From positions 1 to 64,000 of the forward strand of contig NZ_JAFKFW010000005.1 in the NCBI RefSeq assembly GCF_017308015.1: DNA of 64,000 nucleotides, in the 5' to 3' direction. The position numbers and the translations under genes are program-made. Below are positions 6,742 through 26,161 of the stretch, in pieces (position 1 is the first letter of the stretch; each line of letters begins with the position of its first letter). This DNA is from Allobosea sp. (lineage in GTDB: Bacteria; Pseudomonadota; Alphaproteobacteria; Rhizobiales; Beijerinckiaceae). Under the pieces are notes generated by a model. The model had not been told where the DNA came from. It saw nothing but the letters and a program-made list of their open reading frames with translations, and made no database searches.

Positions 6742-7851
6742 GTGAAATTCGACATTTTCCAGATGGAGCGGAACCAGACGCTCTTCGAGAACGACGTCGA
6801 GATCAACCTGACTGAAAGCGGCGTCCATCCCTGGTCAATCGAGGACATTCTGGGCGAACAGGCCGCCCGCGACCTGCTGAAGCAGCCGCTCGGCTATGGC
6901 TGGACCGACGGCCGGCCGGACCTGCGCGCCAACATCGCCTCCTGGTATCACGGCGCAACCGCGGCGAACGTGCTCGTGACCAACGGCTCTTCCGAGGCGA
7001 CGATGATCGCGTTGATGGCGCTGTTCGAGCCCGGCGACGCGCTGGTCTTCGCCCTGCCGAATTTCATGCAGATTGATGGGCTGGGCCGTGCGCTCGGCTT
7101 CGACATCCGACGGCTCGAACTCTCCGGCAACACCGACTGGCAGATCGATCCCGCAGAACTCGACAAGGTCGTTGCCGGCGCCAAGGCGATCGCCGTGACC
7201 AACCCGGCCAATCCCACCGGCAGCGTGCTGTCGGCAGCAAGCCGCGCCGCCCTTATCGAAACTGCGAAACGCAACGACGCCTGGCTGCTGGTCGATGAGA
7301 TCTATCGCGGCGGCGAGATCGACGGCGCCGAGACCGAGACGCTCTGGGGCAGCTATCCCAAGGTGGTCGTCACCTCCAGCCTGTCGAAATCCTTCGCCTG
7401 CCCCGGCCTGCGTTTAGGCTGGATCGTCGCACCGGAGGCGATCGTGGCCTCCGCCGCCGAGCGGCAGGACTACACCACGATCGGCAGCGGCATCCTCAGC
7501 CAGATCCTCGCCGAAGAGGTGATGCGCCCGGAAACACGCGGCCGCCTGCTTGCGCACGGCCGCGATTTGCTGCGCAGCAATGCCGATCTCGTGGCGCAAT
7601 GGATGGCGCAACATAACGACTGGTCATGGCGGCGCCCGCAGGCCGGCGGCATGGCCTTCCTGCACTATCCGCACGACATGCCCTCCGAGATTTTCTCGCA
7701 GAAGCTGCGCGAGGAAGAGAGCGTCTTCGTCGTGGCCGGAAGCTGGTTCGGGATCGAGAACCATATCCGCATCGGCATCGGCGTACCGACCGAGGTACTG
7801 CGTGACGGACTGGCGCGGATGGATCGGTTCCTGGCGCGTCACAGAGGCTGA
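6742..7851 (+). CDS. Class I/II PLP enzyme (aminotransferase A)
   Basis: This 369-residue fold-type-I PLP enzyme has the expected residues: GYGWTDG at 51-57 near the N-terminus, NPANPTG at 154-160, cofactor aspartate D185 in VDEIYR, and Schiff-base lysine K216 in SSLSKSFACPGLRLGW. No signal peptide is present, so it should act in the cytoplasm. Start is GTG at 6742, set by GGAGG at 6732-6736. It is clearly paralogous to the protein at 9459-10574 (shared GVHP and GYGWT motifs). The family includes transaminases and beta/gamma-lyases; substrate is unknown. It is convergent with the OCD gene, and its promoter carries the shared TTGGA/TCCAA repeats. Confidence 0.85.
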   Translation: MKFDIFQMERNQTLFENDVEINLTESGVHPWSIEDILGEQAARDLLKQPLGYGWTDGRPDLRANIASWYHGATAANVLVTNGSSEATMIALMALFEPGDALVFALPNFMQIDGLGRALGFDIRRLELSGNTDWQIDPAELDKVVAGAKAIAVTNPANPTGSVLSAASRAALIETAKRNDAWLLVDEIYRGGEIDGAETETLWGSYPKVVVTSSLSKSFACPGLRLGWIVAPEAIVASAAERQDYTTIGSGILSQILAEEVMRPETRGRLLAHGRDLLRSNADLVAQWMAQHNDWSWRRPQAGGMAFLHYPHDMPSEIFSQKLREEESVFVVAGSWFGIENHIRIGIGVPTEVLRDGLARMDRFLARHRG

Positions 7852-7864
7852 AGCGCGTTGGGAA

Positions 7865-7885
7865 GGGCGACGCTACGCGTCGCCC
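7865..7885. terminator. Hairpin between convergent genes
   Basis: GGGCGACG at 7865-7872 and CGTCGCCC at 7878-7885 form a perfect eight-base stem with a five-base loop, and the loop holds the TAG of the minus-strand gene. It sits between convergent genes and probably acts in both directions, although no U-tract follows. Confidence 0.45.
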
Positions 7886-8838
7886 TGACGCCCGATTCCG
7901 TCCAGCACCACCCGCGCGATCGCGATATCCTGCACCGCGATCCCCGTGAGGTCGGCGATGGTGATATCGTCATCCGAACCGCGCGCCGGCGCGTCACCAG
8001 CCAGCACGGCCCCCAGCTCGACGCAGTCCCCAGCATCGATCAGCCCGACGGCTGCTGCTGCCGCGAACTCGCCATGGTCGAGGCTCTGCTCCAGCGAATC
8101 CGCGATCCGCGTATCGGCAAGCGCGACCAATGCCGTATCCAGCTCCTGCTTGCCCGGCGCATCGGCCCCGAGCGCAGTAATATGCGTGCCGGGCCTGATC
8201 CAGTCGCCGAGGATGATCGGCGCGGCGGCCGGCGTCACCGTGATCAGCGCATCCGACTGCGCGCAGAGTACCTCCAGCTCCGCCACCGGCTCGATGGTGA
8301 TGCCCTCCCCTGCGAGATCACGCCGCAGCGCGTCCAACTTCTCCGATGAACGCGCCCATACTGCGAAGATCGGCTCGCGCTCGCGCAACAGATGCGCGGC
8401 GGCGCGGATCTGGAACCGCGCCTGCGTGCCCGCGCCGACGATCCCGACCCGGCGCGCATCGGCCCGCATCCCGGCCCGCGTCGCGATGGCACCGGCCAGC
8501 GCAGTCCTGAGATCGGTCAGCCAGCCCTCGTCGCGGAGGATGGCGACGACAGTGCCGGTCTCGGCCGAGAGCGCGATCATCATGCCGCTCGTCGTCGGCA
8601 GGCCCCTGGCGGGGTTGTCGTAGAACCCCGTCGCGATCTTCACGACGAAGATGGCATTGCCTGCGATATGGCCGAACTTGATATGGCAATCGCCGTTATG
8701 CGCGGGGAAGCCGAGATAGCCGACCGGCGGCATCTGCACCTTGCCGGCCGCAGCGGCCTTGAAGCCTTCTTCCAGCGCAATGAAGGCCCGGTCGAGATCG
8801 ACGGCGGCCTCGATCTCCGCACGCGACAGGTCAAGCAT
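7873..8838 (-). CDS. Ornithine cyclodeaminase/mu-crystallin family protein
   Basis: The product (321 residues) fits the OCD/mu-crystallin family, NAD(P)-dependent enzymes that include ornithine cyclodeaminase, ketimine reductases and amino acid dehydrogenases. A substrate-binding N-terminal half (HIKFGHIAGN, LPTTSG) is followed by a Rossmann motif, GIVGAGTQARFQ, and the typical acidic DAPGKQELD segment. Start ATG at 8838 overlaps the stop of the upstream regulator gene by a few bases, indicating translational coupling; the longer frame to 8952 would overlap the regulator further. It is the last gene of a three-gene operon with aminotransferase B and the regulator. True ornithine cyclodeaminase activity is not established. 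Confidence 0.82.
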   Translation of the reverse strand: MLDLSRAEIEAAVDLDRAFIALEEGFKAAAAGKVQMPPVGYLGFPAHNGDCHIKFGHIAGNAIFVVKIATGFYDNPARGLPTTSGMMIALSAETGTVVAILRDEGWLTDLRTALAGAIATRAGMRADARRVGIVGAGTQARFQIRAAAHLLREREPIFAVWARSSEKLDALRRDLAGEGITIEPVAELEVLCAQSDALITVTPAAAPIILGDWIRPGTHITALGADAPGKQELDTALVALADTRIADSLEQSLDHGEFAAAAAVGLIDAGDCVELGAVLAGDAPARGSDDDITIADLTGIAVQDIAIARVVLDGIGRQGDA

Positions 8839-9448
8839 CCGGGGTCTCGTTGGCTTGGTTGAGGTAGTTGTAGACGGTCGCACGGGCGAGCCCGAGAATG
8901 CGCGAGATATAGGCGGCGGCATTGCGCCCGCCGAAAGCTCCGTTGGCGGCAAGGTCCGCCACCAGCGCCCGCTTCTCGGCCCGGCTGAGGCTGGTCACGG
9001 CAAGCCCGCGGCTTTGCGTCCATTGCTGCACGAACTCGTTGATGCGCTCGTGCCAGTCTTCCTTGAACAGGGCCTGCGGCTTCTCCGTGCCAGCCGGCAC
9101 CGTGGCGAAGGCCGAGAGCGTCTGCATCAGCGCATGGAACTGCGAGACATCGACATTGATGCAGAGCACACCGATGGCCTTGCTCCCGGCCGAGAGCACG
9201 ATGCTGATCGATTTCAGCCGCCGCCCGTCCCAGTTCACCTTCTCATAGGGGCCGATGATCGTCTCGTTCGGATCGAAGCCGATCTCGTCGAGCAGGGAAG
9301 GTTCGCCCAGCACGCGCTGTGAGAAATTCCCGGCGATATGCACGACGCTCTGCGAGCCGAGATCGTGCAGCACGACCTCGGCATGCGGCCGGAACAGCAA
9401 AGCCACCGCATCGCAGACCGGCAGGTAGGGAGCGAGTTCCGGCGTCAT
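8831..9448 (-). CDS. YheO/DauR-like transcriptional regulator
   Basis: This 205-residue protein has a PAS-like YheO domain (about residues 8-120; HAEVVLHDLGSQSVVHIAGN) and a C-terminal helix-turn-helix (about 165-200; GAFGGRNAAAYISRILGLARATVYNYL), the architecture of DauR, which controls D-arginine use in Pseudomonas. It lies ten bases after the aminotransferase B stop and overlaps the OCD gene start, so it is an operon-internal regulator. It probably senses a cationic amino acid or derivative and binds the TTGGA/TCCAA repeats in the two aminotransferase promoters. The domain call is firm; ligand and sites are inferred. Confidence 0.82.
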   Translation of the reverse strand: MTPELAPYLPVCDAVALLFRPHAEVVLHDLGSQSVVHIAGNFSQRVLGEPSLLDEIGFDPNETIIGPYEKVNWDGRRLKSISIVLSAGSKAIGVLCINVDVSQFHALMQTLSAFATVPAGTEKPQALFKEDWHERINEFVQQWTQSRGLAVTSLSRAEKRALVADLAANGAFGGRNAAAYISRILGLARATVYNYLNQANETPDA

Positions 9449-9458
9449 GCGCGAGCCT

Positions 9459-10574
9459 TTAGCGCGGCTGTGACTTGAGATAATCGCTCAGGCGTTCCAG
9501 TCCCGCGGAGAGATGCTCGGCCGGCGCGCCGATGCCGATGCGGATATAGCCGTCCATCCCGTAGACATCGCCCGGCAACAGCATGATGCCACGCTCTTCG
9601 CGCAAGCGGTGCACGAGCTGCGTCGAGTTCATCGAGTGGCTGTACCTGATGAAGGCCATGCCGCCCGCCTTGGGCGGCACGAAGGAGAAGAACTCGTCGT
9701 TAGCCTCCACCCAGTTCGTCAGCAGCGCGAGGTTCTCCCGCAGGATAGTCTTGCTCCGCTGCAGGATTTCGGCGCGCTTGGCCGGCTGCACGACGATGCG
9801 GGCGATGTGCTCGCTCAGTGCGCTCGTCGTGATCGAGGTGTAGTCCTTGTTCTGCCAGGCCGTGTAGATGTCCTTGGCCGGCCCGACCAGCCAGCCGATG
9901 CGCAGCCCGGGCAGCGCCATCGCCTTGGAGAGCCCGCTGGTGATGATCGCCTTCTCGTAGAGATCAGCGAAGCTCGGAGGCTCGTCGGCCTCCAGCTCCG
10001 CGCCCTTGTAGACCTCGTCGGCATGCAGGTAGCAACCCTGTGCACGAGCGATCGCGACCAGAGCATCCATCGTCTCGCGCGAGAGCAGACTGCCGGTCGG
10101 GTTGTTCGGATTGCAGATCGTCATCAGCTTGGTGCGCGGCGTGATCGCCTGGCGGACCTCGTCGAGATCGGGCGTCCAGCCTAGTTCCTCTCGCAGCTTC
10201 ACTTCCTTGACGGTGGCGCCGATGGCCCGCGCCCAGCCCCAGATCTGCAGGTAATTCGGTACGAAGACGACGATCTCGTCACCCGGCTCGATCAGCGACA
10301 TGACCATCAGGAAATTGGCTTCGGCCGAGCCGTTCGTGACGATCACCTCATCCGAGGTCCGGTTGCGGTAGAGCTTGGCGATGTCCTCGCGCAACTCGAC
10401 GGCGCCATTGGTCCAGCCATAGCCAAGCTCGACCCCCATCAGCTTCGCGCGCTCATCGGCGCTGAGCAGCTCGTTCAGCGAATAGGGATGGACGCCGCTA
10501 TCGGAGAGATTGAACTCGACGGTGTTCTCGTAGAGCGACTGGATGCGCTCCAGTGTGAATTCTTCGATCTTCAT
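9459..10574 (-). CDS. Class I/II PLP enzyme (aminotransferase B)
   Basis: About 371 residues from ATG at 10574 (an in-frame ATG at 10583 is also possible, and the frame continues to 10643). PLP residues are NPNNPTG at 155-161, D186 in HADEVYKG and K217 in SGLSKAMALPGLRIGW. It is a close paralogue of the enzyme at 6742-7851, sharing GVHP at 27-30 and GYGWTNG at 51-57. It is the first gene of an operon with the YheO/DauR-like regulator and the OCD-family enzyme, and is divergent from argH. Its role could be transamination of a basic amino acid or a lyase reaction; the sequence does not decide. Confidence 0.85.
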   Translation of the reverse strand: MKIEEFTLERIQSLYENTVEFNLSDSGVHPYSLNELLSADERAKLMGVELGYGWTNGAVELREDIAKLYRNRTSDEVIVTNGSAEANFLMVMSLIEPGDEIVVFVPNYLQIWGWARAIGATVKEVKLREELGWTPDLDEVRQAITPRTKLMTICNPNNPTGSLLSRETMDALVAIARAQGCYLHADEVYKGAELEADEPPSFADLYEKAIITSGLSKAMALPGLRIGWLVGPAKDIYTAWQNKDYTSITTSALSEHIARIVVQPAKRAEILQRSKTILRENLALLTNWVEANDEFFSFVPPKAGGMAFIRYSHSMNSTQLVHRLREERGIMLLPGDVYGMDGYIRIGIGAPAEHLSAGLERLSDYLKSQPR

Positions 10575-10632
10575 GCTGCCCATCCCGCGGCGACCGATCC
10601 GCCGCACCTCCCGCGAGTATGATGGGCATAGA

Positions 10633-10670
10633 TTGGACGTCAAGGTCGATTTTGGAATTTACAGTCCAAA
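10633..10670. promoter_or_regulatory. TTGGA/TCCAA operator-like repeats, aminotransferase B/argH
   Basis: TTGGAC at 10633-10638, TTTGGA at 10651-10656 and TCCAAA at 10665-10670 repeat the half-sites seen at 6627-6653; the last two form an inverted repeat across eight bases. The site sits between divergent aminotransferase B (start 10574) and argH (start 10725), so one bound regulator could control both. Confidence 0.55.
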
Positions 10671-10724
10671 TCACGATTGCTATTCCTTGGCGACCACATC
10701 CCAGCCGCTCCCGGAGAGCCCATC

Positions 10725-12143
10725 ATGTCCGACCAGAACCCCGGTGCCAACAAGATGTGGGGCGGCCGCTTCACCACCGCGCCGGCCGATGTGATGCGCA
10801 AGATCAATCCCTCGATCAGCTTCGACTATCGGCTCTACCGGCAGGACATCGCGGCATCCAAGACCCATGCCGCGATGCTGGCCCGCCAGGGCATCATCGC
10901 GAGCGCCGACAACGAGCGCATCCAGGCCGGGCTCGACCAGATCCGTGGCGAGATCGATCGCGGCGAACTCCAGTTCAGCATCGACCTCGAGGACATCCAC
11001 ATGAACGTGGAAGCGCGCCTCAAGGAGATCATCGGCGAGCCGGCCGGGCGTCTGCACACCGCCCGCAGCCGCAACGACCAGGCCGTCACCGATGTCCGCC
11101 TCTGGATGCGCGACGCCATCGATGCTCTCGACGGCACCATCCGCGACTTGCAGCAGGCCCTGATCGAGCGTGCCAGCGAGCATGCCGACACGATCATGCC
11201 GGGCTTCACCCATATGCAGGTCGCCCAGCCCGTGACCTTCGGCCACCATCTGATGGCCTATGTCGAGATGTTCGGCCGCGACCGCGAACGACTGGCCGGC
11301 GCCCGCCAGCGCACCAATGTCTCACCGCTCGGCGCCGCAGCGCTCGCCGGCACCGCCTTCCCGATCGACCGGCAGTTCACGGCAGCCAAGCTCGGCTTCG
11401 CCCGGCCGACCGAGAACTCGATGGATTCGGTCGGCGCGCGCGACCATATCTGCGAATTGCTGTTCTGCTGCTCGATGCTGGCCGTGCATCTCTCGCGCCT
11501 CAACGAAGAGATCACGCTCTGGTGCAGTGACGGCTTCCGCTTCATCGCGCTGTCCGACGCCTTCACCACCGGCTCCTCGATCATGCCGCAGAAGCGCAAC
11601 CCCGACGCCGCCGAACTGGTGCGCGGCAAGACCGGCCGCGTCGTCGGCTCGCTCACCGCCATGCTGGTAATGGTCAAGGGCCTGCCCATGACCTTCATGA
11701 AGGACATGCAAGAGGACAAGGAGCCGATGTTCGACGCGCTGGAGACGGTCGAGCTCTGCGTCGCTGCCACCACGGGCATGGTCCGTGACCTGACCGTGCG
11801 CCCCGAAGGCATGCGCGCCTTCCTCGATCGCGGCTTCCCGACCGCGACCGACCTCGCCGACTGGCTGGTGCGCGAGGCCGGAATCCCCTTCCGCGACGCC
11901 CATCACATCACCGCCCGCATCGTCGCGCTGGCCGAGGCCAAGGGCTGCACCTTGCAGGCGCTCGATCTCGACGCGATGCGCTCGGTCGATGCGCGCATCA
12001 ATGAAGCGGTCTTCGAGGTGCTGGCGCCGGAGCACTCCGTCCGCAGCCGCCGCAGCTATGGCGGCACAGCCCCAGACACCGTCCGCGAGGCGATCGAGCG
12101 GGCGAGGCAGCGCTGGCTGTCCGACAAGCCGATCCAGGGCTGA
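10725..12143 (+). CDS. argH: Argininosuccinate lyase family protein
   Basis: A 472-residue member of the fumarase/aspartase superfamily matching ArgH in length and motifs: KMWGGRF near the start, TARSRNDQ in the first conserved region, and the superfamily signature [12 protein letters not shown]. ArgH cleaves argininosuccinate to arginine and fumarate in the cytoplasm. ATG at 10725 is set by GGAGAG at 10713-10718. In many Alphaproteobacteria biosynthetic argH is followed by a small lipoprotein gene and lysA; here it is followed by a kinase-M23-aminotransferase fusion and faces a transaminase operon. It may therefore be a second, catabolic copy acting on argininosuccinate or an analogue. That is inference. 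Confidence 0.9.
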
Positions 12144-12281: not shown

Positions 12282-15200
12282 ATGGAACACGTCTGGTTGC
12301 GCGGAGTGGCCGAGAAGTTCGGCATCGACGGCGGGCTGCGGCAGCTCGGCGGCGAATACGATCTTAACTTCCGCGGCCGGACCAGCGAAGGCGACGTCAT
12401 CGTCAAGGCGATGCGCCCGCAGGGCGAGCCCGCGCTCGTCGACCAGCAATGCGCCGCGATCACCCACGCGCTCGCCGTCGATCCGACTTTGCCCTTGCCT
12501 CGCCTCCTCCCTGTCGAAGGCAATCGTTTCTGGCAGACCGTGGCCGACGCCCAGGGCCAGCAGCGCATGGTCTGGGTCCAGCGCGCCTTTACCGGCATTC
12601 CGATGGGCGAGGCCGGGCCGCAGCCACCTGTCGTCCTCGCCGAGCTCGGCGCGCTGACTGCGCGTCTCGACCTCGCGCTGCGCGATTTCAAGGTCACCGC
12701 TGCCCCGGACGCCGCGAAATGGGACCTGACCGAAGCCGGCTGGGTCAAGCCGCATCTCGACGTGCTGGAAGGCTCGCGCCGCAAGCTCGTGGCGGAGATC
12801 GTCGCTGGCTTCGAAGCGCTCAAGCCTGCGCTCGACAAGCTGCCGCGCCAGACCATCCATAACGACCTCAACGACTTCAACATCCTCGTCCAGCCCCGCC
12901 TCGGCGAGCCCGCACGGATCAGCGGCCTGATCGATTTCGGCGACATGACCCATGGCCCGCGCGTCTGCGAGATCGCCATCGCCGCTGCCTACGCCATCCT
13001 CGACCACGAGACGCCGGAAGCAGCGCTCGCCGCCTTCGTCGCCGGCTATCATGGCGTCTCGGCCCTGAGTGCCCAAGAGATCGGCCTGATCTGGCCGCTC
13101 GCCCGCATGCGTCTTGCGGTCAGCGTCGTGAACTCGACGATCGAAGCGAAGGGCCGCCCGAACGACCCCTACGTGACGATCTCGCAGGCACCCGCCTGGC
13201 GTCTCCTCGAAAACCCCGCCATCGATGGCGAACTGATGGGCGCGCGCCTGCGCAACGCCTGCGGCCTGCCCGTCACCGACGCCGCCGGCCGCATCGCGAA
13301 TTGGATCGCCGGACAGCGCAGCAGCTTCGCGCCCGTGCTCGGCCGCGCGCTCGACGGCCTGCCCGTCGGCTCGCTCGGCGTGGCCGAGGCGACGATCCCT
13401 GCGAACCCGTTCGAACTGCGCGCCGACGAAGCCCGCAATCTCGGCACCGGGCTCGGCATCACATCCGAGTGGTGGCTCGGCCAGTATGGCGAGCCGCGGC
13501 TGGTCTATACCGACAAGGCTTTCCGCAAGGGCCGCTGGCTCGCCTCGAACCGCCGCACCATCCATATGGCCGTCGATATTTTTGCGCCGGCAGGGGAGCC
13601 GGTCTGCGCGCCGCTCGCCGGCAAGGTCGTGCTGGCGGAGAACCGCAAGGGCCATCTCGACTATGGCGGCGTCGTCATCCTTGAGCACCGCACGCCCGCA
13701 GGCGACGTCTTCCACACGCTCTACGGCCATCTCGCAGCGGACGGCGCAGCGAAGCTGAAACCAGGCCAGGAGATCGCGGCAGGTGAAACCTTCGCCAGGC
13801 TCGGTCCGGCCGAGGAGAATGGCGGCTGGGAGCCGCATCTGCATTTCCAGCTCGCGCTGACGCTGGACGGCATGGGCCATGACTGGCCGGGCGTCGCCGA
13901 TCCCGACGACTGGGCGCTCTGGCAGGCGATCTGCCCGAACCCGGCCGCCCTGCTCAACCTGCCCGACGATGTCGTCGCCTATCGAGCAATCGACGAGGCC
14001 GCTCTGCTGGCCGAGCGCAAGGCCCGCTTCGGCGCCAACCTCAAGCTGAGCTACAGGAAGCCTGTCACCTTCCTGCGCGGCTGGCGCCACCATCTCTTCG
14101 ACGCGATGGGCCGGCCCTATCTCGACGCCTATAACAACGTGCCGCATGTCGGCCACGCCCATCCTCGCATCCGCAAGGTGGCGATGGACCAATTGGCGCG
14201 GATGAACTCCAACACGCGTTATCTCCACCCGGCGCCGATGGCGCTGGCCGAGCGGCTGACCGCCAAACTTCCCAAGGAGCTGGAAGTCTGCTTCTTCGTC
14301 AATTCCGGCTCGGAGGCGAACGAGTTGGCGCTGCGCCTCGCCCGTGCGGCCAGCGGCGGCTATGACATCGTGACGCCCGATCACGGCTATCACGGCAACA
14401 CCACCGGCGCGATCGACATCTCCGCCTATAAATTCAACAAGCCGAACATGGGCGGGCGCAAGCCTTGGGTGCAACTCGTCGACGTCGCCGACGATTATCG
14501 CGGCCGCTTCCGCCGCGATGACCCCGACCGGGCTCTCCACTACGCACAGCAGGTCGATGGTGCGCTGAAGGCGATCGCGGAACGCGGCGGCAAGGTCGCG
14601 GGCTTCATCGCCGAAACCTTCCCGAGTGTCGGCGGCCAGATCATCCCGCCACCGGGCTATCTCGCCGCGGTCTACGAGCGCATCCGCGCCGCCGGCGGCA
14701 TCTGCATCGCCGACGAGGTGCAGACCGGCCTTGGGCGCCTCGGCGACTATTATTTCGGCTTCGAGCAGCAGAATGTGCGCCCGGATATCGTCGTGCTCGG
14801 CAAGCCTTTCGGTAACGGCCACCCGATCGGTGCTGTGATCACCACTCGCGCCATCGCCGAGCGCTTTGCTGAAGGTCCGGAATATTTCTCGACCTTCGGC
14901 GGCTCGAACCTGTCCTGCCGCATCGCTGCAGAGGTACTCGATATCGTCGAGGAGGAAGGGCTCGCGACCAATGCGAAGGTCATGGGCGAGAAGCTGCTCA
15001 CGGGCATGCGAACGCTGATGGCGGATTACCCTTGTGTCGGCGACGTCCGCGGCATTGGCCTCTTCCTCGGCCTCGAACTGGTCACGGATCGCGAGACGCT
15101 GGAGCCCGCGACGGATGCGGCCTCCCATGTCATGAACCGTCTGCGCGACATGCGCATCCTCGTCGGGCGCGAGGGGCCGGCTGACAACATCCTCAAGATC

Positions 15201-15290
15201 CGCCCGCCTCTGACGATCGGCGCCGACGATGTCGAGATGATCCTCGACCGGCTCAGGATCTGCCTGCGCGAGGTCGAAGCGGCGCGATAG
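12282..15290 (+). CDS. Kinase-M23-class III aminotransferase fusion
   Basis: A 1002-residue three-domain protein. Residues ~1-330: aminoglycoside-phosphotransferase/hydroxylysine-kinase-like kinase with catalytic HNDLNDFN at 193-200 and DFGD at 218-221. Residues ~395-545: M23/LytM-like domain with HxxxD (H428, D432), YGH at 481-483 and HLH at 519-521 all retained. Residues ~575-1000: class III aminotransferase with NSGSEAN at 674-680, DEVQTG at 811-816 and PLP lysine K841, the group containing ethanolamine-phosphate and 5-phosphohydroxylysine phospho-lyases. No signal peptide is present. The likely chemistry is phosphorylation of a hydroxylated amine followed by elimination of phosphate and ammonia. 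ATG at 12282 is set by GGGGAGAG at 12271-12278. The M23 domain's cytoplasmic role is unknown. Confidence 0.88.
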   Translation: MEHVWLRGVAEKFGIDGGLRQLGGEYDLNFRGRTSEGDVIVKAMRPQGEPALVDQQCAAITHALAVDPTLPLPRLLPVEGNRFWQTVADAQGQQRMVWVQRAFTGIPMGEAGPQPPVVLAELGALTARLDLALRDFKVTAAPDAAKWDLTEAGWVKPHLDVLEGSRRKLVAEIVAGFEALKPALDKLPRQTIHNDLNDFNILVQPRLGEPARISGLIDFGDMTHGPRVCEIAIAAAYAILDHETPEAALAAFVAGYHGVSALSAQEIGLIWPLARMRLAVSVVNSTIEAKGRPNDPYVTISQAPAWRLLENPAIDGELMGARLRNACGLPVTDAAGRIANWIAGQRSSFAPVLGRALDGLPVGSLGVAEATIPANPFELRADEARNLGTGLGITSEWWLGQYGEPRLVYTDKAFRKGRWLASNRRTIHMAVDIFAPAGEPVCAPLAGKVVLAENRKGHLDYGGVVILEHRTPAGDVFHTLYGHLAADGAAKLKPGQEIAAGETFARLGPAEENGGWEPHLHFQLALTLDGMGHDWPGVADPDDWALWQAICPNPAALLNLPDDVVAYRAIDEAALLAERKARFGANLKLSYRKPVTFLRGWRHHLFDAMGRPYLDAYNNVPHVGHAHPRIRKVAMDQLARMNSNTRYLHPAPMALAERLTAKLPKELEVCFFVNSGSEANELALRLARAASGGYDIVTPDHGYHGNTTGAIDISAYKFNKPNMGGRKPWVQLVDVADDYRGRFRRDDPDRALHYAQQVDGALKAIAERGGKVAGFIAETFPSVGGQIIPPPGYLAAVYERIRAAGGICIADEVQTGLGRLGDYYFGFEQQNVRPDIVVLGKPFGNGHPIGAVITTRAIAERFAEGPEYFSTFGGSNLSCRIAAEVLDIVEEEGLATNAKVMGEKLLTGMRTLMADYPCVGDVRGIGLFLGLELVTDRETLEPATDAASHVMNRLRDMRILVGREGPADNILKIRPPLTIGADDVEMILDRLRICLREVEAAR

Positions 15291-15375: not shown

Positions 15376-16377
15376 ATGGAGTTGAAATGGCTGGAAGACG
15401 TCCTGAGCCTGTCGACCACGCTCAGCTTCTCGCGCGCGGCTCGTGAACGCAACGTCACGCAATCGGCCTTGAGCCGTCGGGTCAAGCAGCTCGAGGCTTC
15501 GCTTGGCTCACCGCTGTTCGACCGCAGCAGCTACCCGATTCGCCTGACGGAAGCGGGACGGACCTTCCTTCCGCGCGCGCAAGAGATCGTCCGGCAGATT
15601 CAGGCCGCGCGGCAGGAGCTGCGCCATCTGCACGAGGTCGCTTCCGAGACCCTGACCTTCTCCACGCTGAACACCCTGTCCCTGACCTATTTCCCCGGCC
15701 TCGTCCGCCGCATGGAAGAGAAGCTCGGCCCGCTGAAGACGCGGTTCTGCGAACAACGCTCGTCCTTCGACGGCAACGTCGGGCTTCTCGCCCATGGCGA
15801 ATGCGATTTCCTGCTGACCTACGCGCATGAATGCGTGCTGCCGGATCTCGACCCAGAGCTTTTCATTTATCGCTGCCTCGGCACCGAGCGGGCGATTCCC
15901 GTCTCGATCCCCGACGGCAATGGCGAGCCGCTCCACGCCTTCCACTGCGGAGAAGCACCGGTACGCCTGCTGAGCTATGGCAGCTCGACCTTTTTCGCGC
16001 GGCGGCTTGCCCTGCTCTTCGCCGAGCGCCCGACCCCGCTCGTCACCGTCTACGAAAACCCGATGTCCGTGGGTCTCAAGGCGATGGTCCTGGCCGGGCG
16101 TGGCGTCGCCTGGGTGCCGGAGAGTCTGGTCGTGGAGGAACTGCGAAGCGGCCAGCTCGTGCCGGCCGCCGATACCTCCTGGTACATCTCTGCCGAAATC
16201 AGGCTCTATCGGGCGAGACAGCAGAGCCGCCCCCCCGTCGAGCAGTTCTGGGCCGCCACCGCGGAAGCCAGCCAGACGGCGCGCACCGAGGACCCTGGCC
16301 GCCCTGTCTTTCCCCGGCTCTGCTTTGCACGCCCAGCCTTCGACAACAGGGAGCCAGGTGTGCCGGCGGTCGTGTGA
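15376..16377 (+). CDS. LysR regulator, HypT/YjiE-like
   Basis: A 333-residue LysR-type regulator: winged helix at about residues 3-62 (FSRAARERNVTQSALSRRVKQLE) and an effector domain after ~95. The N-terminal ELKWLEDVLSL start and the C-terminal GLKAMVLAGRGVAWVPESLV segment resemble HypT (YjiE), a hypochlorite-responsive regulator, but a metabolite-sensing role is equally possible. The C-terminal ~40 residues extend beyond the usual length. GGAGGAT precedes the ATG. It follows the fusion gene by 85 bases in the same direction and is convergent with the serine hydrolase of the peptide cluster, so it could control either. Confidence 0.8.
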   Translation: MELKWLEDVLSLSTTLSFSRAARERNVTQSALSRRVKQLEASLGSPLFDRSSYPIRLTEAGRTFLPRAQEIVRQIQAARQELRHLHEVASETLTFSTLNTLSLTYFPGLVRRMEEKLGPLKTRFCEQRSSFDGNVGLLAHGECDFLLTYAHECVLPDLDPELFIYRCLGTERAIPVSIPDGNGEPLHAFHCGEAPVRLLSYGSSTFFARRLALLFAERPTPLVTVYENPMSVGLKAMVLAGRGVAWVPESLVVEELRSGQLVPAADTSWYISAEIRLYRARQQSRPPVEQFWAATAEASQTARTEDPGRPVFPRLCFARPAFDNREPGVPAVV

Positions 16378-16384
16378 TACGCGC

Positions 16385-17440
16385 TCAGCCCGGCTGGCGG
16401 GCTTCAAGGATCAGGCGCAGCAGGCGTCCGAAAGCGAAGCGGTTCACCTCCGTGCCCTTGATATCGGTGTTGACCCGATGGACGATCACGAGATCGAGCG
16501 ACGGGATAACGAGGCAATACTGCCCGCCGACGCCCTGGGCGCTGTAGCTGCCGGCCGGCAGCACGACGCCGGGGAAGCCAGCGCCGGAGCGCTCGGTCCA
16601 CCACATATAGCCGTAGCCGCCGCGCGGCCCGGCATCTGAAAGCGGCAGCACGCTGGTCGCGACCCAGTTGGCCGGCACGACCTGTTCATTCTGCCAGCGG
16701 CCCTGCCGCAGGAACAGCAGGCCGAAACGAGCGAGATCGCGCGTCGACATCCGGAACGGATAGGCGGGATGGGCAGAGCAATCATCCGGCTCCAGCCAGC
16801 CGTCACGGCGCTCGCCATCGAGGCGGAAATCCTCCAGGCCGAGCGGGCGGCCGATCCGTTCGAGGAAATCGTCATGGATTCCGGCGCCGGTGAGCGCAGT
16901 GAAGATCGTGCCCAGCGCATTGAAGTCCCAGTTGTTGTACAACCAGAAGGCGCCCGGCGGCTGCGAATGGCGCTGCGGCTTGATCGACTTCATCCAAGGC
17001 GATTCATAGCCTGCGGGATGGAAGATGCCGGAGCGCGCCGTCAGCAGATCGTAGATCGTCGCCGCCTTCTCGCGGTCGCTCAGTCCTTCCTTGTCGTCGA
17101 TGCCGAGATCGGCGAGCGTACGGGACAGGTCGATCCGGCCTTCCTCCTCATGGATGCCGATCAGCGCGCTGAGGAAGCTCTTGCGGACGGAATGGCACTG
17201 GTAGCGATGGGCGAGGTCGCCGCGGCTCGCGATCACGCGTCCGCCCTGTACGATCATCACTGTCGCCGTCGAGATGGTGTCGGCATAGCGCCAGGCCCGG
17301 TCGAGCCCCTCGCGCGACCAGCCGGCCGCCTCCGGCGTCACCGCCTCCCAGCCATTTGCCGGCCAATGTTCTCCCGCCAGGGCCTTACCCGTCATGACTG
17401 CCTCTTCCATGTCCTGATCCGTCGAATCCCTGCCGCTCAC
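16385..17440 (-). CDS. Beta-lactamase-fold serine hydrolase
   Basis: About 351 residues from the GTG at 17440, which overlaps the upstream ATPase stop (GTGA); ATGs at residues 11 and 16 are alternatives. The SxxK nucleophile motif is SVRK (S84-K87), and YNN around residue 177 supplies the class C-type YxN. The family (beta-lactamase/penicillin-binding fold) covers esterases, D-aminopeptidases, D-Ala-D-Ala carboxypeptidases and amidases. There is no signal peptide, which argues against a cell-wall enzyme or true beta-lactamase. As the last gene of a peptide transport and hydrolysis operon it may hydrolyse an imported amide or peptide. Confidence 0.8.
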   Translation of the reverse strand: MSGRDSTDQDMEEAVMTGKALAGEHWPANGWEAVTPEAAGWSREGLDRAWRYADTISTATVMIVQGGRVIASRGDLAHRYQCHSVRKSFLSALIGIHEEEGRIDLSRTLADLGIDDKEGLSDREKAATIYDLLTARSGIFHPAGYESPWMKSIKPQRHSQPPGAFWLYNNWDFNALGTIFTALTGAGIHDDFLERIGRPLGLEDFRLDGERRDGWLEPDDCSAHPAYPFRMSTRDLARFGLLFLRQGRWQNEQVVPANWVATSVLPLSDAGPRGGYGYMWWTERSGAGFPGVVLPAGSYSAQGVGGQYCLVIPSLDLVIVHRVNTDIKGTEVNRFAFGRLLRLILEARQPG

Positions 17441-18231
17441 GCGATCGGGCGATAGCCGACGCTCGCCTCGAGAAACTCGCGCGTATAGGGCTCGTGCGCC
17501 CGGCCGGCCCGAACATCCTCGGCGCTCATCTGTTCGAGGATGCGGCCTTCACTCATCATCGCGACGCGCTCGCACAGATGCGTCACCACCGCGAGGTCAT
17601 GGCTCACCATCAGATAGGTGAGATCGCGATCGCGACGGAGCTGCTTCAGCAGGTTGAGGATCTCGGCCTGCACGGAGACGTCGAGCGCCGAAGTCGGCTC
17701 GTCCAGCAGCAGAAGCTCCGGCTCGATGATCAGCGCACGAGCGATCGCGACACGCTGGCGCTGTCCGCCCGAAAGCTCGTGCGGGAAGCGATAGCGGAAG
17801 GACGGCCCCAGACCGACGGCGGTCAGGATCTCGTCGATGCGTTCCTGCGGCCGGTCGAAGCCATGGATCTTCAGCGGCTCGGCCAGCACGTTCTGGACCA
17901 TCTTGCGCGGATGCAGCGAGGCATAGGGGTCCTGGAACACCATCTGCACGCGCCGGAAGAAGGCCTTGTCGCGCTTGTGCGGCACCTCCCGGTCATGGAA
18001 GGCGATGGAGCCGCCATATTCGCTGTTGAGCCCGGCCAGCGCGCGCAGCACGGTCGACTTGCCGCAACCGGATTCGCCGATCAGGCCGAAGGCTTCGCCA
18101 TGCCCGAGCGTGAAGGAGACATCGTCCACCGCCTTCAGAGCCGAGGCGCCACGGCCGAAGACGACCGAGAGATGGCTCACCGTCAGCGCGGCGGGGCGGT
18201 TCGACGCCGGGGTCTGGTTGATCGCGCTCAT
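17437..18231 (-). CDS. Peptide ABC transporter ATPase (DppF/OppF type)
   Basis: A 264-residue ATPase with Walker A GESGCGKST, Q-loop region [13 protein letters not shown], signature LSGGQRQR, Walker B LLLLDEPTSALD and the switch histidine in SHDLAVV. It energises the adjacent dipeptide/oligopeptide-type permease from the cytoplasmic face. Its start overlaps the stop of the DppD-type gene (ATGA), and its own stop overlaps the serine hydrolase start. It is shorter than typical DppF (~330), lacking the usual C-terminal cysteine-containing extension. Confidence 0.9.
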   Translation of the reverse strand: MSAINQTPASNRPAALTVSHLSVVFGRGASALKAVDDVSFTLGHGEAFGLIGESGCGKSTVLRALAGLNSEYGGSIAFHDREVPHKRDKAFFRRVQMVFQDPYASLHPRKMVQNVLAEPLKIHGFDRPQERIDEILTAVGLGPSFRYRFPHELSGGQRQRVAIARALIIEPELLLLDEPTSALDVSVQAEILNLLKQLRRDRDLTYLMVSHDLAVVTHLCERVAMMSEGRILEQMSAEDVRAGRAHEPYTREFLEASVGYRPIA

Positions 18232-19094
18232 GCCCGGCTCCCGCTCTGCAAGGTCGGACCGTCCAGCCAGGCCGGATCGCGGCTCGGCACCTGCAGCATG
18301 TCGGCCTGCCGGTCTAGCCGCGGCAGGCTGTCGAGCAGCGCGCGCGTGTAGGGATGGCGCGCGTTGCGCAGCTCGCGCGCCGGGATGTCCTCCATGATCC
18401 GGCCGGCATACATCACCAGAACGCGATCGCAGAAATCCGCCACGAGATTGAGGTCGTGGCTGATGAAGATCAGCCCGGCGCCGCGCCGCGTCACCAGCTC
18501 GTCGAGAATGCTCAGAACCTGGCGCCGGATCGTGACGTCGAGCGCCGAAGTCGGCTCGTCCGCGATGATCAGGTCGGGCTCCGGGATCAGCATCATCGCG
18601 ATCATGATGCGCTGGCCCATGCCGCCCGAGACCTCGTGCGGGAAGAGCCTGAAAACGCGGGCGGGATCGCGGATCTTTACGGCCTCCAGCATGGCGAGCG
18701 CCCGGGCTTCGGCCTCCTTGCCGCCGACCTTGTGGTGCAGCCGGTAGGCCTCTGTGATCTGCTCGCCGACCCGCATCAGAGGATTGAGCGAGAATTTCGG
18801 GTCCTGCAGGATCATCGAGATGCGGTTACCGCGGATCGTCCGCATCTGCCGTTCACCGGCGGCGAGCAGGTCGATCCCGTCGAAGGACAGCTTCTTGGCG
18901 GAGATCGTCGCCGCCTTCGGCGTCAGCTTCAGGATCGTGCGTCCGGTCAGCGACTTGCCGGAGCCGGATTCGCCGACGATGCCGACCTTCTCGCGGCCGA
19001 CGCTGAACGAGATGCCGCGCACCGCCTGCACCGTGCGATGCGCGCTCTTGAAGGTGACGGAGAGGTCCTCGACCTCGAGCAGCGGCTTATCCAT
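18228..19094 (-). CDS. Peptide ABC transporter ATPase (DppD/OppD type)
   Basis: A 288-residue ATPase with Walker A GESGSGKS, signature SGGMGQR, Walker B LIIADEPTSALD and an H-loop SHDLNL. The ATG at 19094 overlaps the end of the upstream permease gene by eight bases; a longer frame to 19193 would run into that gene. It pairs with the DppF-type ATPase as a heterodimer driving the DppB/DppC-type channel. Confidence 0.9.
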   Translation of the reverse strand: MDKPLLEVEDLSVTFKSAHRTVQAVRGISFSVGREKVGIVGESGSGKSLTGRTILKLTPKAATISAKKLSFDGIDLLAAGERQMRTIRGNRISMILQDPKFSLNPLMRVGEQITEAYRLHHKVGGKEAEARALAMLEAVKIRDPARVFRLFPHEVSGGMGQRIMIAMMLIPEPDLIIADEPTSALDVTIRRQVLSILDELVTRRGAGLIFISHDLNLVADFCDRVLVMYAGRIMEDIPARELRNARHPYTRALLDSLPRLDRQADMLQVPSRDPAWLDGPTLQSGSRA

Positions 19095-20019
19095 GGCGCG
19101 GATCCAGGATGTCGCGCAGGCCGTCGCCGAAAAGGTTGAAGGCCAGGCTGGTGACGAGGATGGCGAGGCCGGGAATCCCGGCGATCCAGCCATTGGTCAG
19201 GATGAACTCGCGACCTGAGGCCAGCATCGCCCCCCATTCCGGGCTCGGCGGTTGCGCGCCAAGGCCCAGGAAGCCAAGCCCCGCCGCGGTCAGGATGATC
19301 GACGCCATGCTGAGGGTAATGCGCACAACGACGGAGGGGATGCACATCGGCACGACATGGCCGAGGATGATCCGGAGCGGCGATGCGCCCTGCAGGCGCA
19401 CCGCTGCAATGTAGTCGGACTTGCGGATCGACAGCGTCTCGGCCCGCGCCAGCCGCGCGATCGGCGGCCAGGCGGCGAGCGCGATCGCGATGATCGCATG
19501 GTCGATGCTGGGGCCCAGGGCCGCGACGAAGGCGAGCGCCAGCACCAGGCTCGGGAAGGCCAGGAAGATGTCGACGATGCGCATCAGCACGGTATCGACC
19601 CAGCCGCCGAGATAGCCGGAGGTGGTGCCGACGATCAGCCCGAGCGGCGCCGCGATCACTGCCGTCAGCATGGCTATGTAGAGCGTGATCCGCGCGCCGA
19701 AGACCAGCCGGCTGAAAATGTCGCGGCCGAGCTCGTCGGTGCCGAACCAATGCGCGGCCGAAGGCCGCTGCAACCGCTGCGTCAGGTCCTGCGCGTAGAT
19801 GTCGTGGGTCGCGACCAGCGGCGCGAACAGCGCCGTCAGCGCGATCACCACGATGATGGCGAGGCCGAACATGGCGGCGGGATTGGCTCGCAGCCGCCAC
19901 CATTTCAGCGACAACTGCTGCATCCGTGCCTGGAAGGGCGAGGATGGGACGGGTGCTGCGAGCCAGGCCTTGAGGCCCTGCCCGCCGGCCTGGTCGATGG
20001 GTTGTGGTGCCATGGCCAT
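19087..20019 (-). CDS. Peptide ABC transporter permease (DppC type)
   Basis: A 310-residue inner-membrane protein with the OppC N-terminal segment (PAAMFGLAIIVVIALTALFAPL), the FGTDELGRDIFSRL motif typical of DppC/OppC, about six membrane segments and the EAA-loop region (AAVRLQGASPLRIILGHVVP) that contacts the ATPase. ATG at 20019 lies three bases after the DppB stop; ATG at 20013 is an alternative. Confidence 0.92.
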   Translation of the reverse strand: MAMAPQPIDQAGGQGLKAWLAAPVPSSPFQARMQQLSLKWWRLRANPAAMFGLAIIVVIALTALFAPLVATHDIYAQDLTQRLQRPSAAHWFGTDELGRDIFSRLVFGARITLYIAMLTAVIAAPLGLIVGTTSGYLGGWVDTVLMRIVDIFLAFPSLVLALAFVAALGPSIDHAIIAIALAAWPPIARLARAETLSIRKSDYIAAVRLQGASPLRIILGHVVPMCIPSVVVRITLSMASIILTAAGLGFLGLGAQPPSPEWGAMLASGREFILTNGWIAGIPGLAILVTSLAFNLFGDGLRDILDPRHG

Positions 20020-20022
20020 GCC

Positions 20023-21093
20023 TCAGCGGGTCCGCGGGTCGAAGACCCGGTAGAGCAGGTCGCACAACAGGTTGAGCGTGACGAAGATGACGCCGACCAG
20101 AAGCGTGCAGCCGACGACAGCATTCATGTCGCCTGCGAGCAGCGCATTGGTCAGGTAGCGGCCGAAGCCCGGCCAGGCGAAGACGGTCTCGGTCAGCACA
20201 GCGCCTTCGAGCAGAAAGGCATAGGACAGCGCCACCACCGTCAGCACCTGCACGGCGATGTTGCGGAAGGCATGGCCCCATACAGTGCGCGCCCACGACA
20301 GGCCCTTCACCCGCGCCGTCACCACATATTCCTGCCCGAGCTGCTCCATCATGAAGCTGCGGGTCATCCGGCTGATATAGGCAAGCGAGCTGAAGGCCAG
20401 GATCGAGGCCGGCAGAATGATATGTGACACCGCATTGCCGAACATCTCCCAGTTGCCGGCGAGCAGGCTGTCGATCAGCAGGAAGCCGGTGACGGGCTCG
20501 AGGTCGAACTCATAGGTGAAGTCGATGCGGCCCGGGCCGCCGACCCAGCCCAGCGTCGCGTAGAACAGCACGAGCCCCATCAGGCCGAGCCAGAAATTCG
20601 GCGCGGAATAGCCGATCAGCCCGATGACCCGGACGATCTGGTCGAGCCAGGAGCCGCGATACATCGCCGAGAGCACGCCGAGCGGAATACCGAGGCTGGT
20701 ACCGATCACGATCGCCACGCTGGCGAGTTCGATCGTCGCCGGAAAGACGCGGGCGATATCCGCCATCACCGGCTTGCCGGTGGTCAGCGCCATCCCGAAA
20801 TCGAGATGCAGCACGCCCCAGATATAGCGGCCGAACTGGACGTAGAGCGGCTGGTCGAGACCGAGCTGCTTGTACATCGCCTGATAGGCTTCCTGGGTCA
20901 CGTTGTCGCCGAGCACGGCGACGACGGGATCGAGCGGCAGCAGGCGGCCGATGAAGAAGGTCAACGCCGCCAGCCCGAGCAGGGTGACGGCGAAGGAGGC
21001 TAGCGTTCGACCGGAGGCCTTGATCCAGGACGGAAGGATGGTCCGCCCTGGATCGGAGCTCTGGCCGGGTGCCGCGGTGGCGGTCCGGGACAT
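20023..21093 (-). CDS. Peptide ABC transporter permease (DppB type)
   Basis: A 356-residue permease with an N-terminal membrane segment (about residues 31-52), a large extracytoplasmic loop containing LGLDQPLYVQFGRYIWG, and the conserved C-terminal block GAVLTETVFAWPGFGRYLTNALLAGDM. About 25 N-terminal residues precede the usual DppB start. It starts ten bases after the solute-binding protein stop with an AAGG ribosome binding site, and forms the channel with the DppC-type protein. Confidence 0.92.
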   Translation of the reverse strand: MSRTATAAPGQSSDPGRTILPSWIKASGRTLASFAVTLLGLAALTFFIGRLLPLDPVVAVLGDNVTQEAYQAMYKQLGLDQPLYVQFGRYIWGVLHLDFGMALTTGKPVMADIARVFPATIELASVAIVIGTSLGIPLGVLSAMYRGSWLDQIVRVIGLIGYSAPNFWLGLMGLVLFYATLGWVGGPGRIDFTYEFDLEPVTGFLLIDSLLAGNWEMFGNAVSHIILPASILAFSSLAYISRMTRSFMMEQLGQEYVVTARVKGLSWARTVWGHAFRNIAVQVLTVVALSYAFLLEGAVLTETVFAWPGFGRYLTNALLAGDMNAVVGCTLLVGVIFVTLNLLCDLLYRVFDPRTR

Positions 21094-21103
21094 TCAGATG
21101 ACC

Positions 21104-22741: not shown

Positions 22742-22830
22742 GATCTCTGTCCCGCTCTCTGGTTTGTTGTTTGATTGAAAACGCGTCGGCCGCCGGGAGC
22801 AACCGCTAATGCTGCTCCTGGCGGAGATGT

Positions 22831-24258: not shown

Positions 24259-24277
24259 GGCTGGTTATCCCTTCCAG

Positions 24278-24330
24278 AGCACTTTCAAGCGAAGTGAGTA
24301 CCGTTTCGCGTGAAGAAAATGCGATAAAAC
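24278..24330 (+). repeat. Dispersed intergenic repeat, copy 1
   Basis: A ~50-base element between the S9 and M20 genes. Its core (AGCGAA, then ACCG-TTCGCGTGAAGAAAATG, then CGATA) recurs in inverted orientation at 30075-30123 with about five substitutions in fifty. It seems to be a non-coding dispersed repeat. Confidence 0.65.
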
Positions 24331-24336
24331 AAAGAT

Positions 24337-26151: not shown

Positions 26152-26161
26152 GGTCATTCCT

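What the first reader, a model, noticed from the sequence alone, without database searches (positions are those of the whole stretch)
12282..15290. Kinase-M23-aminotransferase triple fusion in the cytoplasm
Three complete domains with intact catalytic residues are fused in one 1002-residue protein without a signal peptide. The kinase and phospho-lyase halves make chemical sense together (phosphorylate a hydroxyl, then eliminate phosphate and ammonia, as in hydroxylysine or ethanolamine breakdown). The M23/LytM domain with HxxxD and HxH retained has no obvious job inside the cell. Similar fusions may already be in databases, but I know of no described function.
Basis: partly seen in the sequence, partly recalled or inferred. 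Interest (0 to 1): 0.8.

Follow-up and report, generated by a model that had tools for sequence, protein, structure and literature searches.

The report
Intracellular kinase–metallopeptidase–lyase triple enzyme
One bacterial protein joins a kinase, a zinc-peptidase-type domain and a lyase that together look able to free, phosphorylate and break down an amino alcohol inside the cell; the family is already listed in databases without a function, and its peptidase part is kept intact, which is unexpected for a domain otherwise known from cutting cell walls.

Summary
Window 12282-15290 (+) is one uninterrupted 1002-aa gene (APH kinase, M23, class III PLP domain; no signal peptide) in a Bosea-like genome. 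It is not an artefact: 75 of 80 named-genome loci carry the same order in one complete frame. It is not new as an object: it passes the NCBIfam model PRK06148 ('hypothetical protein'); I found no described function. The C-terminal part is a phospho-lyase homologue (best fold match human ETNPPL, TM 0.95, 43% identity; motif KPxGNGHP), not a plain transaminase. All five M23 catalytic positions, including two non-ligand histidines, are unchanged wherever aligned in 95 rows, and the M23 part is under purifying selection like the kinase. In the sister family PRK06149 the four histidines are gone in 7 of 7 proteins. So the M23 domain probably still catalyses something in the cytoplasm. Best reading: it releases an amino alcohol from a small amide or peptide, the kinase phosphorylates it, the lyase removes phosphate and ammonia. 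Substrate unknown; neighbouring genes do not settle it. Hydroxylysine is plausible, not shown.

The parts
12282..15290 (+). Triple-fusion gene, 1002 aa (kinase - M23 - PLP lyase)
   Evidence: Single open frame; NCBIfam NF004799 PRK06148 1342.9 bits, cut-off 1128, profile 14-1013 of 1015
12339..13052 (+). APH-type kinase domain (Pfam match, residues 20-257; catalytic-type residues K42, H193, D195, N200, D218, D221)
   Evidence: PF01636 E 2.7e-21; residue conservation
13377..13991 (+). M23 region used for searches (residues 366-570), with a conserved extension before the Pfam core (YGEPRLVYT) and a WPGVADP...CPNPAALL tail after it
   Evidence: Alignments A2 and A4; AF2 model and Foldseek of residues 326-575
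13560..13853 (+). Pfam Peptidase_M23 core (residues 427-524)
   Evidence: PF01551 E 1.3e-16
13563..13577 (+). Hx3D motif codons, H428 and D432
   Evidence: 94 of 95 rows, the other a contig-end gap
13728..13730 (+). H483 codon (YGH), the extra active-site histidine
   Evidence: 95 of 95 rows
13836..13844 (+). HxH motif codons, H519 and H521
   Evidence: 95 of 95 rows
14094..15263 (+). Class III PLP domain (residues 605-994), phospho-lyase homologue
   Evidence: PF00202 E 8.1e-68; Foldseek 6tor TM 0.95, 43% identity
14802..14825 (+). KPFGNGHP, PLP lysine K841 and phospho-lyase-like motif
   Evidence: Alignment with 6tor and 5g4i; motif counts
10677..12143 (+). Neighbour upstream, same strand: second argH-type lyase
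   Evidence: TIGR00838 594.8 bits; another full copy elsewhere in the genome; homologue near the fusion in nine Bosea-type loci, of which L068 and L074 carry the same protein. Association only
15376..16377 (+). Neighbour downstream: LysR-type regulator
   Evidence: Pfam. Association only

Best explanation
A cytoplasmic, self-contained catabolic enzyme. The M23 domain acts as a zinc amidase/peptidase that frees a small amino alcohol (an amine with a hydroxyl on the next carbon) from an imported or salvaged amide or short peptide; the APH-type kinase phosphorylates the hydroxyl with ATP; the C-terminal PLP phospho-lyase eliminates phosphate and ammonia to give an aldehyde or semialdehyde. Shown here by sequence: the three domains in one frame, complete catalytic sets, purifying selection on all three, homology of the last domain to solved phospho-lyases. 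Inferred: all three activities, their order, and that M23 acts first. Component confidence: kinase plus phospho-lyase chemistry 0.8; M23 catalytically active 0.7; M23 releasing the kinase's substrate 0.45; substrate hydroxylysine or a hydroxylysine-containing (e.g. collagen-type Hyl-Gly) peptide 0.2.
For: The closest solved relatives of the PLP domain are the phospho-lyases 6tor (human ETNPPL, 407.6 bits; TM 0.95, 43%) and 5g4i (A1RDF1, 295 bits; TM 0.92-0.93, 37%), ahead of dialkylglycine decarboxylase (209 bits) and of the racemases and transaminases in the 50 rows shown. KPxGNG(H/Y)P at the PLP lysine in 33 of 34 triple fusions sampled (one not parsed by the pattern), as in both phospho-lyases; the three class III paralogues of the same genome that I read have K(A/G)LGGG. 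M23: H428 and D432 in 94 of 95 rows (one contig-end gap), H483, H519, H521 in 95 of 95 (93 distinct rows). A review assigns zinc binding to H(x)nD and HxH and water activation to the first His of HxH, which is not a ligand (PMC9662197, passages), so catalytic non-ligand residues are kept too. Mean column entropy 1.34 bits in the M23 region against 1.70 in the kinase and 1.07 in the lyase, 88 complete rows; dN/dS 0.08-0.22 for M23, 0.06-0.24 for the kinase, 0.05-0.14 for the lyase in 7 comparisons. Whole-protein model pLDDT 90.1, pTM 0.90. Fold of the middle region matches LytM-, lysostaphin- and ShyA-type structures. In S. meliloti pSymB the gene follows an amino-acid-type binding protein, a permease and an SDR on the same strand. 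The same genome has three kinase-lyase pairs without M23, one of them near a histone-deacetylase-fold amidohydrolase.
Against: No activity was measured. Most of the 95 rows were found with M23-region queries, so the sample leans towards intact M23. Kinase-lyase fusions without M23 exist (L176-L178, L020; open frames of 779-796 aa), and PRK06149 keeps the kinase and lyase residues with a ruined M23 site, so M23 is dispensable in some lineages; one more distant full-length relative (L184) has lost residues of all three sites. Triple-fusion loci show no significantly enriched partner among 19 gene categories (lowest p 0.075), so no pathway context supports any substrate. The window's genome has no HglS match, one route on from aminoadipate. 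Hydroxylysine rests on animal homologues (recalled) and a weak genome correlation.
Confidence: 0.42

Rival explanations
1. The M23 domain is a structural or regulatory zinc domain: it orients kinase and lyase or senses metal or ligand, without hydrolysing anything.
For: M23 proteins without a complete catalytic set mostly serve protein-protein interactions (PMC9662197, passages); PRK06149 keeps a middle region with the four histidines lost in 7 of 7 distinct proteins above its cut-off; high pTM suggests fixed packing.
Against: The histidines that are not zinc ligands (H483, H519) are as unchanging as the ligands; a stand-alone member without hydrophobic N-terminus (L055, 298 aa, no kinase or lyase found in the about 9.6 kb held on either side) has all five residues.
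Confidence: 0.25
2. The enzyme is an ethanolamine-type scavenger: kinase and lyase handle ethanolamine or another simple amino alcohol, and M23 serves an N-acyl or aminoacyl amide of it.
For: Best structural match is ethanolamine-phosphate phospho-lyase; fusion genes often stand alone (23 of 96 loci have no same-strand neighbour within 250 bp, contig-end cases and the non-triple L055-L057 included), which fits a general salvage role.
Against: ETNPPL and the hydroxylysine enzyme are close relatives (recalled), so the match does not choose between them; S. meliloti has an amino-acid-type binding protein next to the gene.
Confidence: 0.3
3. The C-terminal domain is an ordinary transaminase and the fusion is unrelated to phospho-lyase chemistry.
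For: Public annotation calls relatives 'aminotransferase class III-fold'; the Pfam model is Aminotran_3.
Against: The two closest solved relatives are both phospho-lyases; motif unlike three of the genome's own class III paralogues; fusion or pairing with a kinase recurs.
Confidence: 0.05
4. Three separate genes joined by an assembly or sequencing error.
For: None found.
Against: 75 of 80 named-genome loci, and 10 of 13 strong M23-domain places in a class-wide sample, carry the same order in one complete frame.
Confidence: 0.01

Closest known systems
NCBIfam NF004799 / PRK06148 ('hypothetical protein', subfamily model)
   Same: Whole length, same domain order, 1342.9 bits against a cut-off of 1128; this protein is a member
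   Different: No difference in architecture seen; the model carries no function
NCBIfam NF004800 / PRK06149 ('aminotransferase', equivalog model)
   Same: Kinase, residual M23-like middle and PLP domain in the same order
   Different: Score 692 below the cut-off of 973; the four M23 histidines are lost in all 7 members above cut-off found (the aspartate aligns in 3 of them); KGMG(N/D)G instead of KPxGNG in the 6 sampled
Ethanolamine-phosphate phospho-lyase ETNPPL (6tor) and bacterial phospholyase A1RDF1 (5g4i, 5g4j)
   Same: Fold, PLP lysine, KPMGNGHP motif, 43% and 37% identity in the structural alignment
   Different: The solved chains (499 and 446 aa) hold the PLP domain without kinase or M23; substrate of the window protein unknown
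Animal hydroxylysine kinase / 5-phosphohydroxylysine phospho-lyase pair (HYKK, PHYKPL; recalled)
   Same: Same two-step logic, APH-type kinase and class III PLP lyase
   Different: Separate proteins, no M23; no direct comparison with HYKK or PHYKPL was made here
M23 peptidases (LytM, lysostaphin, ShyA, LysTt72)
   Same: Fold and complete catalytic set
   Different: The reviewed members act on peptidoglycan outside the cytoplasm or are phage lysins (PMC9662197, passages); here the domain has no export signal and is fused to small-molecule enzymes

Membership tests
PRK06148 (NF004799) | Score above curated cut-off over the whole profile | tested here: met
   1342.9 against 1128; profile 14-1013 of 1015
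PRK06149 (NF004800) | Score above curated cut-off | tested here: not met
   692.3 against 973
Phospho-lyase branch of class III PLP enzymes (ETNPPL, PHYKPL, A1RDF1) | Closest similarity to solved phospho-lyases | tested here: met
   6tor 407.6 bits, 5g4i 295, next dialkylglycine decarboxylase 209; Foldseek order the same
Phospho-lyase branch of class III PLP enzymes (ETNPPL, PHYKPL, A1RDF1) | KPxGNGHP at the PLP lysine (motif read here from the two solved members, not a published definition) | tested here: met
   KPFGNGHP; 33 of 34 triple fusions match KPxGNG(H/Y)P, one not parsed
Phospho-lyase branch of class III PLP enzymes (ETNPPL, PHYKPL, A1RDF1) | Phosphate and ammonia elimination | not testable with these tools
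   Needs an enzyme assay
APH-type small-molecule kinase | APH model and catalytic-type residues | tested here: met
   PF01636 76.9 bits against 23.2; D195, N200 and D218 in 91 of 95 rows, 4 gaps; H193 in 89, with two Q; no PDB sequence match for the kinase part alone at E up to 0.01
Hydroxylysine kinase (HYKK) | Orthology to HYKK or activity on hydroxylysine | not tested
   No animal sequence compared; substrate needs an assay
M23 metallopeptidase | Hx3D and HxH zinc motifs plus extra active-site histidine | tested here: met
   H428, D432, H483, H519, H521; motifs as in PMC9662197 (passages)
M23 metallopeptidase | M23 fold | tested here: met
   AF2 model pLDDT 89.1; 36 PDB matches at E up to 0.001, M23/LytM-type at the top
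M23 peptidoglycan hydrolase | Export to the cell wall (signal peptide or membrane segment) | tested here: not met
   No hydrophobic N-terminus by hydropathy scan
M23 metallopeptidase | Zinc binding and peptide hydrolysis | not testable with these tools
   Needs protein

The most novel reading that the evidence does not exclude
The M23 fold, known from cell-wall cutting, has been recruited as an intracellular zinc amidase or peptidase that is the first step of a three-in-one catabolic enzyme: it clips a hydroxylated amine (for instance hydroxylysine from Hyl-Gly-type peptides) from an amide, and the same polypeptide phosphorylates it and eliminates phosphate and ammonia. This would be a new substrate class and location for M23 enzymes and a complete pathway on one chain.
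Probability: 0.4. Interest if true: 0.75.

Novelty: new variant of a known kind. Interest (0 to 1): 0.5.

Why it matters
A widespread family (Alpha- and Gammaproteobacteria, and MAGs labelled Gemmatimonadota) has been listed as 'hypothetical protein' or 'aminotransferase' although its sequence predicts a whole catabolic route. If the intact M23 domain hydrolyses something in the cytoplasm, it extends a peptidase family otherwise tied to peptidoglycan, and it gives a testable route for breaking down hydroxylated amines in soil, marine and plant-associated bacteria.

Tried and rejected
Sequencing-error fusion: rejected. Plain transaminase: disfavoured.

Pathway from gene neighbours: clustering of neighbours in 96 loci gave mostly genus-level synteny. 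A tblastn census of 19 gene categories in 45 triple-fusion stretches (picked by hand from those held, about one per genus), 19 stand-alone-lyase stretches and 31 control stretches gave nothing significant for the triple fusion (lowest p 0.075, a glutamine-synthetase-like gene, 5 of 45 against 0 of 31). Of the 19 stand-alone-lyase stretches only 12 have a kinase next to the lyase. They showed aldehyde dehydrogenase (7 of 19 against 0 of 31, p 0.0005; 6 of 18 and p 0.001 without the stretch that supplied the query), a histone-deacetylase-fold amidohydrolase (4 of 19, p 0.017; 3 of 18, p 0.044; L189, L202, L203, L209, all of the window's own genus, so not independent) and a PotD-type binding protein (5 of 19 against 1 of 31, p 0.024; 4 of 18, p 0.054). 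The census is weak: one to three query sequences per category, many taken from the loci counted; E up to 1e-12 (it found LysR only in the window, although other LysR genes are present); p values uncorrected; many category labels given by eye; a 20th category (other class III aminotransferases) was queried but not counted.

Hydroxylysine via HglS (PF07063): 3 of 11 genomes with this M23 subfamily against 8 of 278 others (p 0.006); strong HglS only, 2 of 11 against 2 of 278 (p 0.008); without the stand-alone-M23 genome, 2 of 10 against 9 of 279 (p 0.05); the window's genome has none. Too weak to use.

Literature: the shown parts of ten search listings (86 returned none) named no paper on the fusion; passages of PMC2405808 on fused genes did not either. 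The 2012 paper on hydroxylysine kinase and the ammoniophospholyases (Veiga-da-Cunha, seen only as a reference) is not held, so I could not see whether it mentions bacterial fusions. A guess that S. meliloti tags SMb20705/20706 belong to this locus could not be checked and is not used.

Tree label: L184 was entered as a stand-alone lyase; one search shows a full-length, eroded relative (kinase, M23 and PLP-lysine positions changed). It is the long outlier of that tree; the clades quoted do not contain it.

Active-site geometry and distances between the three sites: not measurable, since the models came without coordinates.
Full report
What is there. Window 12282-15290 (+) encodes one 1002-residue protein in one frame. 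The window is G000:C55:1-64000 of a 4.89 Mb draft; the nearest named relatives are Bosea (L070-L074 and L141, 92-96% in the M23 region). Pfam finds APH, Peptidase_M23 and Aminotran_3, each above its cut-off. There is no hydrophobic N-terminus; of three ordinary M23 proteins found as weak matches, L050 and L051 have a hydrophobic stretch near the start and L052 is less clear.

Is it real and how common. Of 80 named-genome loci fetched with the M23 region (the best 80 of 92 confirmed), 75 have the whole kinase-M23-lyase order in one complete frame; four are cut by contig ends and one (L118) has an in-frame stop. Hosts are mostly roseobacters and other Alphaproteobacteria, with Oceanospirillaceae, Osedax symbionts Rs1 and Rs2 (three records), Granulosicoccaceae and MAGs labelled Gemmatimonadota; single MAG labels such as Kuenenia or Flavobacteriia may be binning errors. 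In a class-wide sample, 14 of 289 genomes match the M23 region at 1e-10; 13 strong places in 11 of them comprise 10 triple fusions, two M23-lyase fusions without the kinase (L056, L057) and one stand-alone M23 protein (L055); the matches in the other three genomes look like ordinary M23 proteins. Within the genus sample, 7 of 37 genomes (own included) pass the PRK06148 cut-off and one more match is cut by a contig end. In the plasmid collection 89 records match the M23 region, 64 of them Sinorhizobium.

Known family. The protein scores 1342.9 bits with NF004799 (PRK06148, 'hypothetical protein'; cut-off 1128) over nearly the whole model, and 692 with NF004800 (PRK06149; cut-off 973). So the architecture is catalogued. 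I found no described function, within the limits of an open-access library and the shown parts of ten listings.

The lyase end. The C-terminal domain's closest solved relatives are human ethanolamine-phosphate phospho-lyase (407.6 bits; Foldseek TM 0.95, 43% identity) and the bacterial phospholyase A1RDF1 (295 bits; 0.92-0.93, 37%), ahead of dialkylglycine decarboxylase (209 bits). Around the PLP lysine it reads KPFGNGHP, like both phospho-lyases (KPMGNGHP); 33 of 34 sampled triple fusions match KPxGNG(H/Y)P and one was not parsed, while three class III paralogues of the same genome have K(A/G)LGGG. Such lyases are rare exceptions in a group made mostly of transaminases (PMC8154272, passages).

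The kinase end. APH-type, with K42, H193, D195, N200, D218 and D221; D195, N200 and D218 are found in 91 of 95 rows (4 gaps), H193 in 89 with two Q, and one further triple fusion (L175) has Y there. No solved structure matches this part by sequence, and outside PRK06148/06149 only homoserine kinase appears in NCBIfam, weakly. The same genome holds three kinase-lyase pairs as neighbouring genes without M23.

The M23 middle. A model of residues 326-575 (pLDDT 89.1) matches LytM-, lysostaphin- and ShyA-type structures, and a profile finds M23 chains by sequence. In 95 aligned rows (93 distinct) H428 and D432 are present in 94 (one contig-end gap) and H483, H519 and H521 in 95. Most of these rows were found through the M23 region, so intact sites are favoured. 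A search with the whole PRK06149 model is fairer: of the full-length proteins from it and that I compared, the window gene included, 14 have all five residues and 8 have none of the four histidines. The 8 are the seven above the PRK06149 cut-off, which keep kinase and PLP residues (the M23 aspartate still aligns in 3 of them), and L184, an eroded relative below the cut-off that has lost residues of all three sites. No half-way M23 site was seen. Because the first histidine of HxH is not a zinc ligand but is proposed to activate water (PMC9662197, passages), its conservation speaks for catalysis. dN/dS between the window gene and seven relatives is 0.08-0.22 in the M23 part, like the kinase (0.06-0.24), a little above the lyase (0.05-0.14).

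Evolution. A tree of 65 lyase domains puts the six PRK06149 proteins sampled in one clade (100/100) and 18 stand-alone lyases, with one kinase-lyase fusion, under one branch (98/100); triple fusions lie outside that branch in several lines, with kinase-lyase (L176-L178) and M23-lyase (L056, L057) fusions among them. The outlier L184 was mislabelled there. An early triple fusion with later loss or decay of M23, or of the kinase, fits, but the tree is unrooted and repeated gain is not excluded.

Whole protein. AlphaFold2 on 52 sequences gives pLDDT 90.1 and pTM 0.90, a confident three-domain arrangement.

Context. In nine Bosea-type loci (L068 and L074 carry the same protein) the gene lies near a second argH-type lyase, PRK07324-type PLP enzymes, an ornithine-cyclodeaminase-family gene and M20 amidohydrolases; in the window a peptide ABC transporter follows downstream. 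In S. meliloti pSymB it follows a family-3 binding protein, an amino-acid permease and an SDR on the same strand. In Ruegeria sp. TM1040 a BCCT transporter, dipeptidase, aldehyde dehydrogenase and Ldh-type oxidoreductase lie upstream. Elsewhere neighbours differ, and 23 of 96 loci have no same-strand neighbour within 250 bp. In a weak census of 19 categories nothing is significantly enriched around the triple fusion, whereas stand-alone lyases do sit with aldehyde dehydrogenases (7 of 19 against 0 of 31) (limits under Tried and rejected). The triple fusion thus looks genomically self-sufficient.

Reading. Kinase then phospho-lyase on a vicinal amino alcohol is the strongest inference. M23 enzymes cut peptide bonds, M23B ones with a preference for glycylglycine in the first studies (PMC9662197, passages), and one Bosea kinase-lyase pair has a separate amidohydrolase near it, so the simplest role for the fused M23 domain is to free the kinase's substrate. 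Collagen-type Hyl-Gly is attractive because hydroxylysine there precedes glycine (recalled) and because Osedax (bone-worm) symbionts carry the gene, but this is suggestion, not evidence. A non-catalytic scaffold role remains possible.

Verdict. Observation confirmed; a member of a catalogued, functionally unassigned family; the new element is the finding that the intracellular M23 site is strictly kept and selected, with a natural contrast in PRK06149.

Noticed in passing
window 6742-10643: Two PRK07324-type PLP enzymes (below that model's cut-off; next best GntC and VioD, arginine-derivative enzymes) flank an ornithine-cyclodeaminase-family gene and a YheO-like regulator, next to a second argH; kept in nine Bosea-type loci. 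May be a hydroxyarginine- or arginine-like catabolic set.
   Followed up: partly
window 16385-27139: Beta-lactamase-fold hydrolase, peptide ABC transporter, M20 amidohydrolase, prolyl-oligopeptidase and alpha/beta hydrolase in a row: a peptide-use island beside the fusion.
   Followed up: partly
L189 7481-14769 (own genome C5): Kinase-lyase pair with an aldehyde dehydrogenase and a GntR regulator (both named by eye) and a histone-deacetylase-fold amidohydrolase; homologues of the latter also in L202, L203, L209, all of the same genus.
   Followed up: partly
L055 about 9594-10301 (-): Stand-alone 298-aa M23 protein of the same subfamily, without hydrophobic N-terminus and without kinase or lyase in the stretch held.
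   Followed up: partly
L056, L057: M23-lyase fusions without kinase; PLP motif changed to KPxGAGHP, so the reaction may differ.
   Followed up: no
L176, L177, L178, L020: Kinase-lyase fusions (open frames 779-796 aa) without an M23 domain.
   Followed up: partly
L184: Eroded full-length relative (904 aa) in which kinase, M23 and PLP-lysine positions are all changed; may be a pseudo-enzyme.
   Followed up: partly
L064, L065, L091: Triple fusion downstream, on the same strand, of a glutamine-synthetase-like gene and a regulator-like gene, with a branched-chain-type ABC transporter nearby (names by eye); L064 and L065 also have a second class III PLP gene.
   Followed up: no
L118: Copy of the gene in a single-cell genome with an in-frame stop (open frame 269 aa); described only.
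   Followed up: no
window 2012-4411 (-): 799-aa transketolase/pyruvate-dehydrogenase-E1-like protein with weak Pfam matches.
   Followed up: no
L108, downstream of the fusion: A 2823-aa open frame directly downstream on the same strand, not examined.
   Followed up: no
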